Origin: Caldilineales bacterium
GTDB lineage: Bacteria; Chloroflexota; Anaerolineae; J102
Assembly (NCBI GenBank): GCA_024102915.1
Contig: JAGFJG010000121.1
Span: 1 to 64,000, forward strand
Length of the DNA: 64,000 bases
Reading direction: 5' to 3'
Shown: in pieces, positions 39,685 through 50,035 of the stretch
How positions within the stretch are numbered: the stretch's first letter is position 1
Layout of the letters: every line of letters begins with the position of its first letter
Translations under genes and position numbers: made by a program
The notes under the pieces: model-generated
Seen by the model: the letters and a program-made list of their open reading frames with translations, nothing else
Database searches by the model: none
What the model was told of the DNA's origin: nothing

Positions 39685-40237
39685 TGGTTATTTGCCTCCA
39701 ATTCGAATGATGATTTTGACGGATTCACAACCGCTCACGGCAGATGAGAATCCAACTCATCTGCGTAGCTGTTGTTCGCGAAGTATAATATGGGCAGCCT
39801 CAGATCATAAAGCGTATTCAAGACGTCCTTCAAAACAGCCTGATCCTGAGATATGCCATCTTGACATCACCGAGACAGGGTGACCAGTGACTATCAAGAT
39901 TGCCCTGGACGTGAACCTGGAATGACGCCGGTGAATCTATCGTCACGCGAATGCAGATGATTATAGTATGAACCTGGTTTAGCGGCGTGGGCGAAGTCCA
40001 TCCTGAATGGATGGCCGGAGGCATAGACCGGCCACTCATTATAGGTTGATTCTGATCTGCTTCACAAAGCGCCCGCCGACGGTCGAGAACGGCGGTTTCT
40101 GGCAAAGACGAAAATCTTGTACAATGCGGGCCTACCGGCATCGAGAGTTCGCCCGCTCCAACATCATGGGGCCCTGCTTGGGGTCCCGTTTCACATTCGC
40201 ATTCCCTATCGACACGCCAACCCTAAAGCGTCTGAAC
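39685..40237. other. Divergent intergenic region LURP-one / hsdM remnant
   Basis: These 553 bp contain no supported gene. A perfect 9-bp hairpin GCAGATGAG/CTCATCTGC with a 7-nt loop (39740-39764) sits in the LURP-one leader. A weak LURP-one promoter is possible at 39784-39810 on the minus strand. TACAAT at 40120-40125 could serve the hsdM remnant, and CCGCCG/CGGCGG lies nearby. Confidence 0.4.
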
Positions 40238-40750
40238 ATGCCCGCTCAAGCCGACATCAACTTCGAACGAGAACTGTGGGAGACTGCGGTGACTTTGCGG
40301 GGAACGGTCGCCCCCGCCGATTACAAGCATTACGTGCTGCCTCTGCTGTTTTTGCGCTATCTTTCATTGCGCTACGAGCAGCGATACAAACAACTCGAAT
40401 TATTGCTGAAAGAGTCGGGCAGCGAATATTACACCGGCGATCCGGAGATCGACGCCGAAATCCTGGCCGACCCGGCGGAGTACGCCAGCAAGAACGTCTT
40501 TGTCGTGCCGAAAGAGGCGTCGTGGCATTATCTGCGCGCCTCGGCCCGCGCCGATGACATCAAATTGCGCATCGACGCCGCCATGAAACTGCTGGAAGAG
40601 CGTTATCCCGAACAACTGGCGGGCGTGCTGCCGCCCATCTATACCCGCAGCAACCTCAGCTTCACTCGCCGCGACTACCTGCTGCCAAAACTGTTGTCGG
40701 GGCGGATAGACCCTTCGGGTTTGTTGGCGAACGAAGAGTTCGAGCGATGA
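40238..40750 (+). pseudogene. hsdM'-'hsdS fusion: deletion remnant of a type I restriction-modification system
   Basis: This 170-codon ORF starts at the ATG at 40238. Residues 1-140 are the N-terminal helical domain of a type I methyltransferase HsdM (ELWETAVTLRGTVAPADYKH, LPLLFLRYLSLRYEQ, NVFVVPKEASWHYL, AGVLPPIYTRSNL). A normal HsdM has over 450 residues and a catalytic NPPF/Y domain, both missing. Residues 143-158 (TRRDYLLPKLLSGRID) instead match the conserved C-terminal helix of the specificity subunit HsdS. The simplest reading is one deletion joining hsdM near codon 140 to the hsdS 3' end. No hsdR is present. The frame remains open, so a small protein may still be made. Confidence 0.7.
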
Positions 40751-40820: not shown

Positions 40821-41633
40821 ATGAGTAAGAAACGCAAATTCAAAAGATCCCAATTGCCGTCCGGGCGAGCATCGCAATACATCGAAATGATGTTGGACAA
40901 TGCTCAGGCTAGCCTGGAGGCCGGAGACTACAAACGCGCACTCATCTCCTCCCAGGCGGCTGTGGATTTGCTGCCTCGCGCGGATAAGCGGCGGGTGGAT
41001 GCGCTCGGTTATTTGGCCGCCGCCCTCACCGTACTCAAGCGCTTTGATGAAGCCTATGAGGTCATGTCCGAGGCGGTGACGCTTGAACCTCATAATCCCA
41101 TCCTCTGGCACAACAAGGGTCTGGTTGCAGGTTATACCAGCCAGACAGGGCAGGCCCTGCGTGATTCTGAGAAGGCCCTGGCGCTAAACCCGCCGCAACA
41201 TCAGCGGGCCGAAGTGCAGGAGCGCGTCACGTTTATGCAGGAGATCGTGCAGCAAGAATTGGCCCTGCGCGGCCCCGACTTCACCATCGAACAATTGATC
41301 GAGCAACAGTCGGAAATGCGACAGGCGATGGATGATATGGAAGCTGATCGCTGGCCGGAAGCGGAGCAGCGCTATCGCAAAGTCATCGCCATGGCCGATT
41401 GTCTGCCGCAGCCGTGGGGTAATCTTGGCATCGCCTTGATGATGCAGCGTCGCTTCGATGAAGCGGAAGCCGCATTCAACCGCGCGCTCGAAGTCGACCC
41501 CGATTACAATCTGGCGAAGCGCAATCTCAAGATGCTGCACTCCACCCGAGAGTCTGGCAATCTCCCGCGCATGATACCGACACAGCCGTATGCGGAGGCC
41601 AGGGTTGATTTGCAATTCAGTGAAGAAGAATGA
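40821..41633 (+). CDS. TPR-repeat protein
   Basis: This 270-residue soluble protein is built of tetratricopeptide-like helical pairs: ASLEAGDYKRALISSQAAVD, YLAAALTVLKRFDEAYEVMSEA, NKGLVAGYTSQTGQALRDSE, RYRKVIAMADCLPQPWGNLG and ALMMQRRFDEAEAAFNRAL. It starts with a basic tail (MSKKRKFKRSQ). TPR proteins are scaffolds for complexes. It lies between the hsdM'-'hsdS remnant and the nuclease-helicase pair, 69 nt before the nuclease start. Its codon use is like the genome and not like the pair, so it may be an original resident. Confidence 0.85.
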   Translation: MSKKRKFKRSQLPSGRASQYIEMMLDNAQASLEAGDYKRALISSQAAVDLLPRADKRRVDALGYLAAALTVLKRFDEAYEVMSEAVTLEPHNPILWHNKGLVAGYTSQTGQALRDSEKALALNPPQHQRAEVQERVTFMQEIVQQELALRGPDFTIEQLIEQQSEMRQAMDDMEADRWPEAEQRYRKVIAMADCLPQPWGNLGIALMMQRRFDEAEAAFNRALEVDPDYNLAKRNLKMLHSTRESGNLPRMIPTQPYAEARVDLQFSEEE

Positions 41634-41702
41634 AGCCTGGCGGCAACATAATTGGTCATGATTGAAGGCCGAGTCATAATGCCTGCACAAGAGGATGTTT
41701 CG

Positions 41703-42452
41703 ATGGATGGTAATCAAAGTGAACGCAGCGCAGGACCATTTGCGGCGATACGCAAGCGCTATCCGCGCGCTTACAAATTATGGTCGCAAGAAGACGACCT
41801 CGAATTGGTCAGGTTGTATGAGCTTGGAATGCAGGTGACCGACCTGTCGAAGCGCTTCCAACGCCAGCCCGGCGCCATCAAGTCCCGGCTCCGCAAACTT
41901 GAGACTGAAAATGGCAAGATTATCACTACTGCTTCTGCTCAGGATGATTCCAAACTTGAAGTCTTCCAGCACATTCTATCTGAGCGCGTCGTTGCTGCCA
42001 GCTTTCGCCAGTTCAACATAGGCTTTAATTTCGCCTGGTACCCTGTACTCTCTAATGAGGTGCGGCCTTATCGATTTCCAGAACGTCAGACTGCGTACAT
42101 GCGAGAGATGTACAACCAGCCAGTCGTGTATCGTTGGGCGATTTATGCGCTGGGAAGCGATGTGTTGAAGGCAATTTATATTGGTATCAGCAAACGGTTA
42201 TGCCCTGATCGCATCGAGGGCTATTTGAACCCTAAAACGTCGAAAACAAGCCAGCGTTTGCACCTGAGATTATCGACAGAGATTGAGATGCAAAGCCTCA
42301 TTGATTTGGACATTTTGGGGCTCTGTTTTGTCGAGGGCAACCTTCTAGGTGAAAATGACTTCGATTTATCCCAAACATCGTCGCGCCTCTTCTTCGAGAA
42401 CTTGCTGATCACCTATTATCGTCGCACTGGCGTCGAGGTTTTGAACCTATGA
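41703..42452 (+). CDS. HTH (SANT/Myb-like) - GIY-YIG nuclease fusion
   Basis: The protein has 249 residues from the ATG at 41703 (GAGGA 8 nt upstream); ATGs at 41658 and 41679 are less favoured. Residues 25-66 form a DNA-binding helix-turn-helix (KLWSQEDDLELVRLYELGMQ, then FQRQPGAIKSRLRKL). The C-terminal half fits the GIY-YIG nuclease pattern: AIY (146-148), YIG (159-161) with the usual spacing, Arg170, Glu232 in FFENLLI and Asn248 in VLNL. The glycine of GIY is Ala. The gene is distinctly A/T-richer than its neighbours from its middle onwards and is followed 58 nt later by a helicase. A restriction or repair nuclease role is inferred. Confidence 0.72.
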   Translation: MDGNQSERSAGPFAAIRKRYPRAYKLWSQEDDLELVRLYELGMQVTDLSKRFQRQPGAIKSRLRKLETENGKIITTASAQDDSKLEVFQHILSERVVAASFRQFNIGFNFAWYPVLSNEVRPYRFPERQTAYMREMYNQPVVYRWAIYALGSDVLKAIYIGISKRLCPDRIEGYLNPKTSKTSQRLHLRLSTEIEMQSLIDLDILGLCFVEGNLLGENDFDLSQTSSRLFFENLLITYYRRTGVEVLNL

Positions 42453-42510
42453 GCGAAGACTGTCACGCTCGATCTCGCTGATGATTCACTGACTGTGGAG
42501 GTGACATAGT

Positions 42511-45159
42511 ATGGATATCGCTGAATACTTTTTAACCAACCACTGGAGTATTGTCCGCGACTCCAACCTCTCGGAAACACCTCCGATCTATTTGTCACCA
42601 GACGACCTCGATCTGTCGATACTGACAAAACGCATGCTCAGATATTATCGCGACGGCATCTACCGTCACCAGTTCCTGGCGATTGAACAAGCACTCAGCG
42701 GAAGAAATATTTGCATGACCACTACAACTGCGTCAGGCAAGAGCCTTGTGTTCTATATCTGTGGGGTCGAATTACTAAGTCGAAATCCACACAGTACAAT
42801 CCTGGCTATGTATCCACTGAAGGCTCTGACCGATGAGCAGGAACATAAGTGGGTTGATGCAGTAGGACAAACCGGTGTCAAAATTAAAGTTGGCAGGATA
42901 GATGGCTCCGTTCACTCAAGTAAACGAAAAAAAATCATCCAAGAATCGTCAATTGTCATAATGACGCCAGATGTCGTTCACGCATGGCTGATGTCGAATT
43001 TGCAGGAGCGAGGAGTCATCAATTTTCTTCAGAATCTGAAATTGGTGGTGATAGATGAGGCGCACACGTACACCGGCGTATTTGGCAGTAATGCAGCCTA
43101 TCTGTTTAGACGATTGCAACAGATAACGAACATGCTCGGGTCAAAGCCGCTTTATATTTCTGCATCGGCTACGATCAACGATCCGGTTGGGCATTTGAAA
43201 AAACTGGTCGGATTGGATTTTGCAATTATCGATCGGAATGAAGATTCATCAGGCCAAAAGGCAAGACGCCTGCTGATGGTTGAACCACCGGATGAAAAGG
43301 ATGTGCTTACACACCTTACTGACCTCATGATCCAGGTCACTGAGAAAACAGACCATCGCTTTATAACTTTTGTCGACAGTCGTAAACAGACCGAGCAGCT
43401 TGCTTCCGTCGTACGACGTAGCGTTGAGCAAGAATATGATGAGGTCGATATCGAGTACGACATTTTGGAAAAACTACGGGTTTTTCCGTTTCGAGCCGGT
43501 TATGAGACATCGGACAGAAAAATCATTCAGGATAAGCTTCAACAAGGTTCGATCAGAGGGGTGATAAGTACTAGCGCTCTCGAAATGGGGATTGACATCC
43601 CCTGGCTAACATTGGGAATTCTGTTCGGTATACCTTATTCAGCAACCAGTTATTTTCAGCGCATTGGGCGAGTTGGACGACACGCAGATGGAACGGTAAT
43701 CGTAGTAAATAATGGTTCGATCCTTTCAAACAGGATATTCCGCCATCCAGAAACACTGGACATAATGCCGCTGAGTGAGGGGGCTCTCTATCTTGAAAAC
43801 AGCCGTATTCAGTATATTCATGCAATGTGTCTGGCAAGGCAGGGTGGCGAGTACGATTCTGTTGTGGGTGCGGGGGTAATCGACTCTGATTTTCATGCGG
43901 CTGATAATTTTGATGAAGCATTTGTACAACTATGCAAGCAAGAGCGCGTTGGTGAAATTACAACTGAACTACAGGCGTTGAAACTTGAAGCCGGTAATGA
44001 CCCGAATCACGTGTTTCCCTTGCGAGATTGTGAGGTGCAGTACCGGGTTCATACTCAAGGAAAATCAGAGCCACAAAAACATTTGGGGACATTGTCTTTT
44101 AGTCAAGTGATGCGTGAAGCATATCCCGGCGCTGTGTACTACTACCAGACACAACCCTTCCGAGTTGTTCGCGTTTTGAACCGCCAGAGAGAAATACTGG
44201 TACGGTACGAGAAGCGCTATACGACGAAACCCACCACTATTCCAACACTTGTATTTCCCAACCTTTCCGAAGGTAATGTCTACCAATCCTTGCAGTTCGA
44301 TGGATTACTTACCGTTGAGTGCAACGTTCAAATCAGGGAAACCATAGTGGGATTCAAGGAGCGTAGAGGGCCAAATGAGTTTAACAATCAGTACCCATTG
44401 GATTTTAGCCTGGGCTACTTCTTCGATCAGGAACGTTTTGAGAGGAACTATTTTTCATCGGGTGTGTTGTTTGCGCATCCGAGCCTGGAGCGAGATGACA
44501 TTGATCGCGCAATTTTAGCGGAGATACTTTTCGAAGCATTCCTCATCCAAGTTCCGTTCGAGCGACAGGACTTGAGATTCGCTGCAGATCGTTTCCGTAT
44601 TAGTAGAGGTTCGTTCGCAGAAGGGAGCAGATTTCTCTGCATTTATGATCAAACCTATGGAAGCCTGCGTCTGTCCAGTCGCCTGATGGAAGCAGAGACT
44701 CTTCGAGGCATGTTAGAAAAGGCTTTGGAAATTGCGACTTATGATGATAGTTTTGCAGTCTCCCCGTCTACTTTGGAAGTATTACGACTACTGCTGGACG
44801 CCTCAAATAAAGAGCCCGTTGCTGAGGTAATACGTGAACACATTTACGAAGAAATAGAGAATTCCGCCTTAGTGATAATGCCTGGTTCAATTGGATTGTA
44901 TCCGGATTACAACAACGAAGAGTTCCGAGTTGATTCGGTTTTATTCACACCGAGAGGGCTCGTCTATCGAGGCAAACGAATATCATTACAAGGACCTCGT
45001 TTTGAAGAAGTGGATGTTACAGTGCCGGTCGACAAAATCGTCGCTATTGAAGGACAAAGCAAATTTGGTTGCTACAATTACGACACTGGCGAGACCAGGC
45101 CGTACTCTTCCACCAAGAGAGCTTCATCGGCTCGTGACACGATCACAATTGGGAAATAG
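42511..45159 (+). CDS. SF2 DEAH-box helicase (YprA/MrfA-like) lacking the usual zinc cysteines
   Basis: This 882-residue helicase is preceded by a strong GGAGGTGA site. Two RecA domains carry motif I TTASGKS (72-78), II DEAH (182-185), III SASAT (217-221), IV VDSRKQTE (288-295), V STSALEMGIDIP (353-364) and VI QRIGRVGR (383-390). These are the motifs of YprA/MrfA and Lhr-like DNA helicases. The C-terminal 450 residues correspond loosely to the region after the helicase core but contain only isolated cysteines and no CxxC, unlike the four-Cys MrfA domain. The gene is A/T-rich and foreign-looking. It is probably co-transcribed with the GIY-YIG gene, and the two may form a DNA defence or repair module. 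Confidence 0.88.
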   Translation: MDIAEYFLTNHWSIVRDSNLSETPPIYLSPDDLDLSILTKRMLRYYRDGIYRHQFLAIEQALSGRNICMTTTTASGKSLVFYICGVELLSRNPHSTILAMYPLKALTDEQEHKWVDAVGQTGVKIKVGRIDGSVHSSKRKKIIQESSIVIMTPDVVHAWLMSNLQERGVINFLQNLKLVVIDEAHTYTGVFGSNAAYLFRRLQQITNMLGSKPLYISASATINDPVGHLKKLVGLDFAIIDRNEDSSGQKARRLLMVEPPDEKDVLTHLTDLMIQVTEKTDHRFITFVDSRKQTEQLASVVRRSVEQEYDEVDIEYDILEKLRVFPFRAGYETSDRKIIQDKLQQGSIRGVISTSALEMGIDIPWLTLGILFGIPYSATSYFQRIGRVGRHADGTVIVVNNGSILSNRIFRHPETLDIMPLSEGALYLENSRIQYIHAMCLARQGGEYDSVVGAGVIDSDFHAADNFDEAFVQLCKQERVGEITTELQALKLEAGNDPNHVFPLRDCEVQYRVHTQGKSEPQKHLGTLSFSQVMREAYPGAVYYYQTQPFRVVRVLNRQREILVRYEKRYTTKPTTIPTLVFPNLSEGNVYQSLQFDGLLTVECNVQIRETIVGFKERRGPNEFNNQYPLDFSLGYFFDQERFERNYFSSGVLFAHPSLERDDIDRAILAEILFEAFLIQVPFERQDLRFAADRFRISRGSFAEGSRFLCIYDQTYGSLRLSSRLMEAETLRGMLEKALEIATYDDSFAVSPSTLEVLRLLLDASNKEPVAEVIREHIYEEIENSALVIMPGSIGLYPDYNNEEFRVDSVLFTPRGLVYRGKRISLQGPRFEEVDVTVPVDKIVAIEGQSKFGCYNYDTGETRPYSSTKRASSARDTITIGK

Positions 45160-45229
45160 AGGATTCCATACCGGAAGTGTAGGTTTTTCAACAATTTGGC
45201 CAGACATGTTTCATACCTGATACGTCGAA

Positions 45230-49202: not shown

Positions 49203-49889
49203 TCACTGATTTCCCAGTAGGCGATCCAACAATGCATCGAGTTGGTCGAGCCACCCCCGATGGCTTCTCGTCCGGTCAACTTTCGATGATTGAGGGAGCG
49301 TCTGGTTTGCGGTGTTTTCACGACGATGCTCTCCCACCAAAAGCGATTCAGCACGGTCGATCATCCCTTCGAGGTCGTTGGTACGCGGGCGGCTTTTTCT
49401 GGCGTCTGTACTTTCTTCCGAACCGGATTGCACTCTCTTTTTACGCCGGTCTGTCTTTTCGGACCACGGCGTTGGCATGTAGCCGGGCGCCTGACTGGAG
49501 GTGGAGACAACGTTGGCTTGATCAAAAGGCTGGTTCAGCAATTCGACACCAGCGCTCATCAACACATATTCCGCCCAGCGCGCCTGCGAACGTTTGACCG
49601 AGAAATAGAAGTTTTCATGGTCGTGCAGGATCGTGAACGATGGGACGCCGTAACGTCGTAACAACGCCTGCACCTCTTCCAAGGAATGCGCGCCTTCTCG
49701 TGGAATCGTAAATTGAAAACCCGTGATTCCTGTCGCCCCCCCCACAACTTCTCCCAGTACGCCAGCGACGCCATTCTTGTCAGCGGCCCGTTTATAATTG
49801 GCGTGACGAATTGCCGACAGGCCGCCAAGAATGCGGGAAATCGGATTTATCGGTCCGAGTATTGCATCGAATAACTCAAATGGGTCCAT
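49203..49889 (-). CDS. Hypothetical protein with charged tail
   Basis: The protein has 228 residues from the ATG at 49889 (GGTGAG upstream). I recognise no family. The N-terminal 120 residues contain GVAGVLGEVVGGATGITGFQ and IPREGAHSLEEVQALLRRYG, followed by VPSFTILHDHENFYFSVKRSQARWAEYVLMSAG, which looks like a folded alpha/beta domain. Residues 135-210 are charged and probably disordered (RRKKRVQSGSEESTDARKSRP). It ends in a short amphipathic helix, LDQLDALLDRLLG. It is soluble, with no signal. It sits alone between the two-component genes and a divergent small membrane protein. Confidence 0.65.
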   Translation of the reverse strand: MDPFELFDAILGPINPISRILGGLSAIRHANYKRAADKNGVAGVLGEVVGGATGITGFQFTIPREGAHSLEEVQALLRRYGVPSFTILHDHENFYFSVKRSQARWAEYVLMSAGVELLNQPFDQANVVSTSSQAPGYMPTPWSEKTDRRKKRVQSGSEESTDARKSRPRTNDLEGMIDRAESLLVGEHRRENTANQTLPQSSKVDRTRSHRGWLDQLDALLDRLLGNQ

Positions 49890-50035
49890 CAATTCTCACC
49901 TTGGTCAACTCAACGCAATCGAGAAAACGTACGAGAAGTTATCTACCATTTTAGCGAACATATGTTCTGTCGTCAATAATTGAATTGACGATCTCATCAA
50001 CTTCCACTCGGCATCAAGATTTCTTTGAGGACGAA

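What the first reader, a model, noticed from the sequence alone, without database searches (positions are those of the whole stretch)
41703..45159. HTH-GIY-YIG nuclease coupled to a YprA-like helicase: candidate new defence or repair module
Seen: a SANT/Myb-like HTH fused to a GIY-YIG-type domain (AIY, YIG, Arg170, Glu232, Asn248 at fitting spacings), then after 58 nt an 882-residue DEAH SF2 helicase. Known: GIY-YIG enzymes cut DNA in restriction and repair; YprA/MrfA helicases repair DNA, and helicase-plus-nuclease pairs are common in defence. Inferred: the pair recognises DNA by the HTH, unwinds it and cuts it. I know of no named system with this exact pair.
Basis: partly seen in the sequence, partly recalled or inferred. 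Interest (0 to 1): 0.82.

Follow-up and report, generated by a model that had tools for sequence, protein, structure and literature searches.

The report
Acquired GIY-YIG nuclease–helicase gene pair
Two neighbouring genes of foreign-looking DNA encode a probable DNA-cutting enzyme and a DNA-unwinding enzyme of a kind often used by bacteria against viruses, but the pairing was found in this one genome only, so it is a plausible but unproven one-off variant of a known theme.

Summary
Gene A (41703-42452) encodes 249 aa: an HTH plus a divergent GIY-YIG domain (AIY146, YIG159, R170, E232, N248). After 58 nt comes gene B (42511-45159), an intact 882-aa DEAH helicase. Its AlphaFold model matches MrfA over nearly the whole length (Z 34.2, 698 residues; next fold 23.2). 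Both genes are GC3 outliers (z -3.0 and -5.4) between host-like genes, so they look recently acquired. The GIY-YIG call is likely but not proven: Pfam is below threshold and the single-sequence model failed.

The conserved-module claim fails. None of 55 named loci of this helicase subfamily encodes the nuclease nearby, and none of the 50 of their genomes searched carries its GIY-YIG part. The nuclease's only real relative is a stand-alone 150-aa gene with no helicase beside it. What is conserved is the helicase subfamily: MrfA-like in fold, without a CxxC in the C-terminal half of any of 40 members, spread over many phyla, and sitting variously beside Cas1/Cas4, type III CRISPR, methylase, TIR and nuclease genes.

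Best reading: a locally assembled helicase-plus-nuclease DNA-processing pair, defence more likely than repair. New variant of a known kind.

The parts
41703..42452 (+). gene A: 249-aa HTH-GIY-YIG protein; HTH about residues 13-66, linker 67-102, GIY-YIG module 103-249
42135..42257 (+). stretch matched by PF01541 (GIY-YIG), residues 145-185: AIY, YIG, R170
42511..45159 (+). gene B: 882-aa DEAH SF2 helicase of MrfA fold without zinc cysteines
41640..45170 (.). low-GC island (GC 0.46-0.49 against 0.57-0.61 in most neighbouring genes) that contains only genes A and B; boundaries approximate

Best explanation
Genes A and B form an acquired two-gene operon. B is an ATP-driven DNA translocase/helicase of the MrfA fold that would load on single-stranded or otherwise abnormal DNA. 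A is a nuclease whose HTH tethers it to DNA and whose GIY-YIG site cuts the DNA exposed or held by B. The likeliest use is destruction of invading phage or plasmid DNA; DNA repair is the main alternative. Shown here: gene structure, helicase motifs and MrfA fold, HTH, GIY-YIG motifs with statistical support, compositional foreignness, absence of the nuclease near other members of the helicase subfamily, and the defence and CRISPR neighbours of some of those members. Inferred: co-transcription, physical cooperation, nuclease activity, and the defence role. The pairing is probably young and local: a helicase that recurs with different partners has here a GIY-YIG enzyme.
For: Same strand, 58-nt gap, purine-rich stretch before each start; no strong terminator between the genes. 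GC3 z -3.0 and -5.4 among 39 window genes. Helicase fold = MrfA (Z 34.2) and all motifs intact. Other members of the subfamily sit beside Cas1/Cas4 (L051, L053, L068), Cas1 plus a CRISPR array (L055), type III CARF genes plus an array (L067), an HKD-SNF2 helicase and a type III methylase (L057), CAP12-TIR (L025), DUF499 (L023) and a NucS/YhcG-like nuclease (L032). Three loci with Cas1 within about 3.2 kb against about 0.24 expected. The same HTH type is fused to an HSDR_N restriction nuclease in G087. YprA-family helicases with partner nucleases are established defence cores (PMC12458937; DruE in PMC13192584).
Against: The pair was found once. No nuclease relative lies beside any helicase relative. 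GIY-YIG is below Pfam's cut-off and was not modelled. The two genes differ from each other in GC3 (0.57 and 0.46), so they may not have arrived together. No intact defence system was identified next to the pair in this window. Several relatives of the helicase have no defence neighbour, and the association was not tested against a matched control.
Confidence: 0.5

Rival explanations
1. A DNA-repair pair that works like MrfAB: the helicase opens damaged DNA and the GIY-YIG enzyme incises beside the lesion, as UvrC does, in place of the MrfB exonuclease.
For: The helicase is MrfA in fold. MrfA works with the exonuclease MrfB on mitomycin damage independently of UvrABC (PMC11194089). The nuclease profile resembles UvrC best among the GIY-YIG sets tested.
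Against: It is absent from nearly all relatives and looks horizontally acquired, unlike a core repair gene. The genome also carries its own UvrC and a second YprA-like helicase with CxxC motifs. Relatives of the helicase occur in CRISPR and other defence loci.
Confidence: 0.25
2. The two genes are unrelated neighbours: a helicase that travels alone, next to an orphan HTH-GIY-YIG gene (a mobile-element or homing-type remnant), with no joint function.
For: The nuclease never accompanies the helicase elsewhere. Its only relative is stand-alone. The two genes differ in GC3. The helicase is often the low-GC gene in other loci too (L034 0.398 against 0.579, L040 0.393 against 0.568).
Against: The two genes are tightly spaced on one strand inside one compositional island that holds nothing else, with host-like genes on both sides.
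Confidence: 0.22
3. Gene A is not an active nuclease: the C-terminal half is a decayed or non-GIY-YIG DNA-binding domain and A acts as a regulator or targeting subunit of B.
For: Pfam below threshold; model of residues 68-249 with pLDDT under 50. N248 is not conserved in the one homologue (aspartate there).
Against: Tyr, YIG, Arg and Glu are all kept, and shared with the homologue. The profile score to UvrC is well above the shuffled controls.
Confidence: 0.15

Closest known systems
MrfA/YprA helicase with MrfB exonuclease (B. subtilis; PDB 6znp, 6znq)
   Same: Helicase core and the C-terminal region align with MrfA over 698 residues (Z 34.2); a helicase gene beside a nuclease gene.
   Different: No CxxC or 4-Cys zinc cluster in the C-terminal half; about 115 extra C-terminal residues; partner is GIY-YIG with an HTH, not a DEDDh exonuclease with TPR.
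YprA-family defence systems: DISARM, Dpd, Druantia, ARMADA, BRIGADE, TALON (PMC12458937)
   Same: YprA-like helicase with a nuclease partner; Dpd has also lost the 4-Cys cluster.
   Different: Compact 882-aa helicase with no predicted zinc modules in the C-terminal half and no fused nuclease domain recognised; no methylase, second helicase, PLD or NERD nuclease in the adjacent genes examined.
wH-GIY-YIG modification-dependent restriction enzymes (Ahi29725I, Apa233I; PMC11037411)
   Same: A helix-turn-helix-type DNA-binding domain N-terminal to a GIY-YIG nuclease.
   Different: Here the HTH is D5/SANT-like rather than the methyladenine-sensing winged helix, and a helicase gene follows; methylation dependence untested.
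Druantia III DruE helicase-nuclease (PMC13192584)
   Same: YprA-like helicase coupled to a nuclease, proposed to act on ssDNA-containing structures of infection.
   Different: DruE is much larger, zinc-rich and carries PLD domains in cis with a DruH partner; here the nuclease is in trans and GIY-YIG.

Membership tests
YprA/MrfA helicase family | SF2 core with Walker A, DEAH, SAT and QRxGRxGR motifs | tested here: met
   ASGKS74, DEAH182, SAT219, QRIGRVGR383; PF00270/PF00271
YprA/MrfA helicase family | C-terminal OB-CON-DUF1998 module folded as in MrfA | tested here: met
   AF2 pLDDT 88.7; alignment to 6znp_A spans model residues 1-766, Z 34.2, next fold 23.2
YprA/MrfA helicase family | 4-cysteine zinc cluster (DUF1998) | tested here: not met
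   No CxxC in the C-terminal half of any of 40 subfamily members; present in the outgroup YprA-like proteins examined. PMC12458937 states the cluster characterises the whole family except Dpd.
MrfAB repair pair | adjacent MrfB-type DEDDh exonuclease | tested here: not met
   Neighbouring proteins in the window matched TPR, GIY-YIG, ABC and HsdM_N families, no exonuclease
GIY-YIG nuclease superfamily | GIY/YIG tyrosines, Arg, Glu and Asn at fitting spacing | tested here: met
   AIY146, YIG159, R170, E232, N248; all but N248 kept in the homologue
GIY-YIG nuclease superfamily | Pfam PF01541 above the curated cut-off | tested here: not met
   18.1 bits against 22.6; homologue 13.6
GIY-YIG nuclease superfamily | profile-level similarity to known members beyond chance | tested here: met
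   hhalign score 29.3 to UvrC (29 columns, probability 55%) against at most 17.7 in 60 shuffles; no better than shuffles against the UPF0213-type set or the mixed set
GIY-YIG nuclease superfamily | GIY-YIG fold | tested here: inconclusive
   Single-sequence AF2, pLDDT under 50 for residues 68-249
TALON (Chloroflexota YprA system) | NERD nuclease, TPR-cold-shock protein and TBP beside an ARMADA-like helicase | tested here: inconclusive
   Ten neighbouring proteins scanned: a TPR protein is present (40821-41633), with no cold-shock, NERD or TBP match; the rest of the window was not scanned
ARMADA/Druantia/TALON clade | BrxA-like insertion after RecA1 and zinc-binding modules | tested here: inconclusive
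   No CxxC in the C-terminal half; protein only about 115 aa longer than MrfA, with the extra length at the C-terminus. The insertion was not tested directly.
wH-GIY-YIG type IV restriction enzymes | methyladenine-sensing winged helix and methylation-dependent cleavage | not testable with these tools
   Needs biochemistry; the HTH here matches phrog_323 D5-like

The most novel reading that the evidence does not exclude
The pair is the first seen example of a two-gene invader-DNA-processing system in which a trans-acting HTH-GIY-YIG nuclease works with a zinc-free MrfA-fold helicase. The helicase subfamily, spread across many phyla and found next to CRISPR, methylase and TIR genes, would be an undescribed branch of the YprA superfamily that recruits different effectors.
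Probability: 0.3. Interest if true: 0.65.

Novelty: new variant of a known kind. Interest (0 to 1): 0.42.

Why it matters
If the pair works as proposed, it adds GIY-YIG to the nuclease types coupled to YprA-like helicases and shows one more case of partner swapping around this helicase fold. The more general point is the helicase subfamily: MrfA's architecture without its zinc cluster, widely transferred, and repeatedly beside CRISPR adaptation genes or other defence genes. It offers a testable case of whether the zinc module is needed for MrfA-type unwinding.

Tried and rejected
Nuclease homologues: searched in 100 relatives, 298 same-class genomes (GIY-YIG part), 400 same-phylum genomes twice, 156 genomes of G552's order, 50 helicase-bearing genomes, plasmids and phages and IMG/VR. 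One real homologue (G552). The weak profile hit in G621 was inspected and rejected: no ORF there matches the profile. The other marginal hits were not followed.

Single-sequence AF2 of gene A failed for the nuclease half; its PDB comparison aligned only the HTH.

Tolypothrix plasmid (L008), with a GIY-YIG gene divergent from a YprA-like helicase: looked like a second case, but that helicase keeps C-terminal cysteine motifs, the GIY-YIG is N-terminal without the HTH, and the genes diverge. Treated as a different association.

TPR gene 40821-41633 as a third member: rejected because its GC is host-like and its relative in G004 has no helicase homologue beside it. TPR genes also neighbour L048 and L055, so a link is not excluded.

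Clean empty site: sought in G005 and G007. ABC-pair neighbours are partly conserved but the whole 30-45 kb stretch differs, so the insertion boundary could not be fixed. No convincing flanking repeats.

A first hhalign run had minus-strand loci in the wrong orientation and was repeated.

Full report
WHAT IS THERE. The two ORFs are exactly as reported: 41703-42452 + (249 aa) and 42511-45159 + (882 aa), 58 nt apart. By inspection a purine-rich stretch precedes each start (GAGGATG and GGAGGTG).

GENE A. Residues 13-66 form a D5/SANT-like HTH (phrog_323 E 2.7e-6; the only confident part of the model). Close relatives of this HTH occur in otherwise unrelated proteins, including one fused to a type I restriction HSDR_N domain (L002), so the HTH alone says only 'DNA-binding'. 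The C-terminal part carries AIY146, YIG159, R170, E232 and N248. PF01541 is the only meaningful Pfam match but is below its cut-off (E 0.0033, 18.1 of 22.6 bits). Three things make GIY-YIG likely. The one homologue found, a stand-alone 150-aa protein in G552 (28% identity, E 4e-18), hits the same PF01541 columns. Tyr, YIG, Arg and Glu are shared between the two, with N248 replaced by Asp. The two-sequence profile scores 29.3 (probability 55%, 29 columns) against UvrC, with at most 17.7 in 60 column-shuffled controls; against the UPF0213-type set and the mixed set it did no better than shuffles. The fold itself was not shown: the single-sequence model has pLDDT under 50 there.

GENE B. An SF2 helicase with intact motifs. 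The AlphaFold model built from 40 homologues is good (pLDDT 88.7, pTM 0.86) and matches MrfA over 698 residues with Z 34.2, well above the next fold, Lhr, at 23.2. Yet no member of the 40 has a CxxC in the C-terminal half, whereas the YprA-like proteins used as outgroup, including the genome's own second one, do (the T. roseum member L004 of the subfamily has one CxxC, at 664, but no cluster). The 4-Cys cluster is said to characterise the YprA family except Dpd (PMC12458937). So gene B is MrfA-like in fold but fails one defining feature; I describe it as a zinc-free MrfA-fold subfamily and do not file it as a standard YprA. In the tree the subfamily separates from the four outgroup proteins, but these are long branches and the sampling is small. 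Gene B groups with proteobacterial and Myxococcota helicases rather than with the other Chloroflexota ones, which suggests transfer.

ORIGIN. GC is 0.49 and 0.46 in A and B against 0.57-0.61 in most neighbouring genes. GC3 z-scores are -3.0 and -5.4 against the other 37 window genes examined. The island contains only these two genes. Flanking genes are host-like: a TPR protein upstream and an ABC transporter pair downstream; the ABC pair has 65-74% identical relatives in other family genomes. A precise empty site could not be shown.

IS THE PAIR CONSERVED? No, in everything searched. The C-terminal part of B found 3 of 396 same-class genomes and 55 loci among about 85,000 species genomes, in bacteria of many phyla and one archaeal MAG. 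No ORF in any of these loci resembles gene A by BLASTP or phmmer, although several loci are cut short by contig ends. In 50 of those genomes only HTH-like or marginal matches to gene A occur. No Pfam GIY-YIG showed among the listed families of 134 neighbour proteins, but only the 25 commonest of 108 families are printed, so this is weak. The stand-alone homologue has no helicase relative within the 19 kb examined.

WHAT THE HELICASE SUBFAMILY KEEPS COMPANY WITH. Cas1 and Cas4 adjacent (L051, L053, L068); Cas1 and a CRISPR array with 75-nt spacing (L055); type III CARF proteins and an array (L067); HKD-SNF2 helicase plus type III methylase (L057, with the same gene order in L058); CAP12-TIR (L025); DUF499 ATPase (L023); a NucS/YhcG-like nuclease (L032); an overlapping 340-aa HATPase-like protein in four Proteobacteria/Myxococcota loci (L019, L021, L024, L027). 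Three loci with Cas1 within about 3.2 kb against about 0.24 expected under a rough assumption of 1.5 cas1 genes per 3.5 Mb (L051 and L053 are both Thermotogae, so not independent). A matched random-locus control was not run.

MECHANISM. The most economical reading, from established knowledge of YprA-family systems (PMC12458937, PMC13192584) and from the anatomy: B loads on single-stranded or aberrant DNA and translocates; A, held on DNA by its HTH, cuts. Shown: motifs, folds (helicase; HTH by prediction), foreign composition. Inferred: joint action, cutting, defence. Defence is favoured over repair because the pair is sporadic and acquired, the genome keeps its own UvrC and a second YprA-like helicase, and the subfamily recurs in defence loci. 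Repair, unrelated neighbours and an inactive A remain open.

VERDICT. A real, compositionally foreign helicase plus probable GIY-YIG nuclease pair, seen once. It is a new variant of a known kind (YprA-like helicase with a nuclease partner). The zinc-free subfamily of the helicase, with its CRISPR and defence neighbours, is the more general and more reusable observation.

Noticed in passing
window 40007-40750 +: HsdM N-terminal domain (residues 87-226, E 4.9e-20) followed directly by a tail that looks like the C-terminus of HsdS (RRDYLLPKLLSGRI; best though non-significant matches are subunit S). It looks like an internal-deletion remnant of a type I restriction operon just upstream of the TPR gene and the pair.
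   Followed up: partly
L127 6955-9624 (G000:C43): The genome's second YprA-like helicase (890-aa open frame) appears by eye to carry an HNH-type stretch (FRCSQCG...DVHHVRPF...CRTCHQR) inserted in its C-terminal region.
   Followed up: no
L051, L053, L068, L055, L067: Members of the zinc-free MrfA-fold helicase subfamily encoded beside Cas1/Cas4 or type III CARF genes, two with CRISPR arrays nearby; possible CRISPR-linked helicase.
   Followed up: partly
L019 11142-12176, L021 11137-12174, L024 11140-12159, L027 7186-8226: In four Proteobacteria/Myxococcota loci the helicase is followed, overlapping or at 1 nt, by a conserved 340-aa protein with a weak HATPase match; an unexplained conserved partner.
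   Followed up: partly
L057 11098-17007, L058 3408-8318: Bacteroidota loci with the helicase overlapping an HKD-SNF2 helicase (PADLOC C3a139), a 231-aa unknown and a type III methylase: possible defence operon (PADLOC tested on L057 only).
   Followed up: partly
L002 763-1680 (G087): The same HTH type is fused to a type I restriction HSDR_N domain, a second HTH-nuclease architecture.
   Followed up: no
L032 11320-12249: A NucS/YhcG-like PD-(D/E)XK protein with a weak Nmad3 match lies 197 nt downstream of the helicase, another nuclease neighbour.
   Followed up: no
window 49203-49892 -: Another GC3 outlier gene in the window (z -2.9), unannotated.
   Followed up: no
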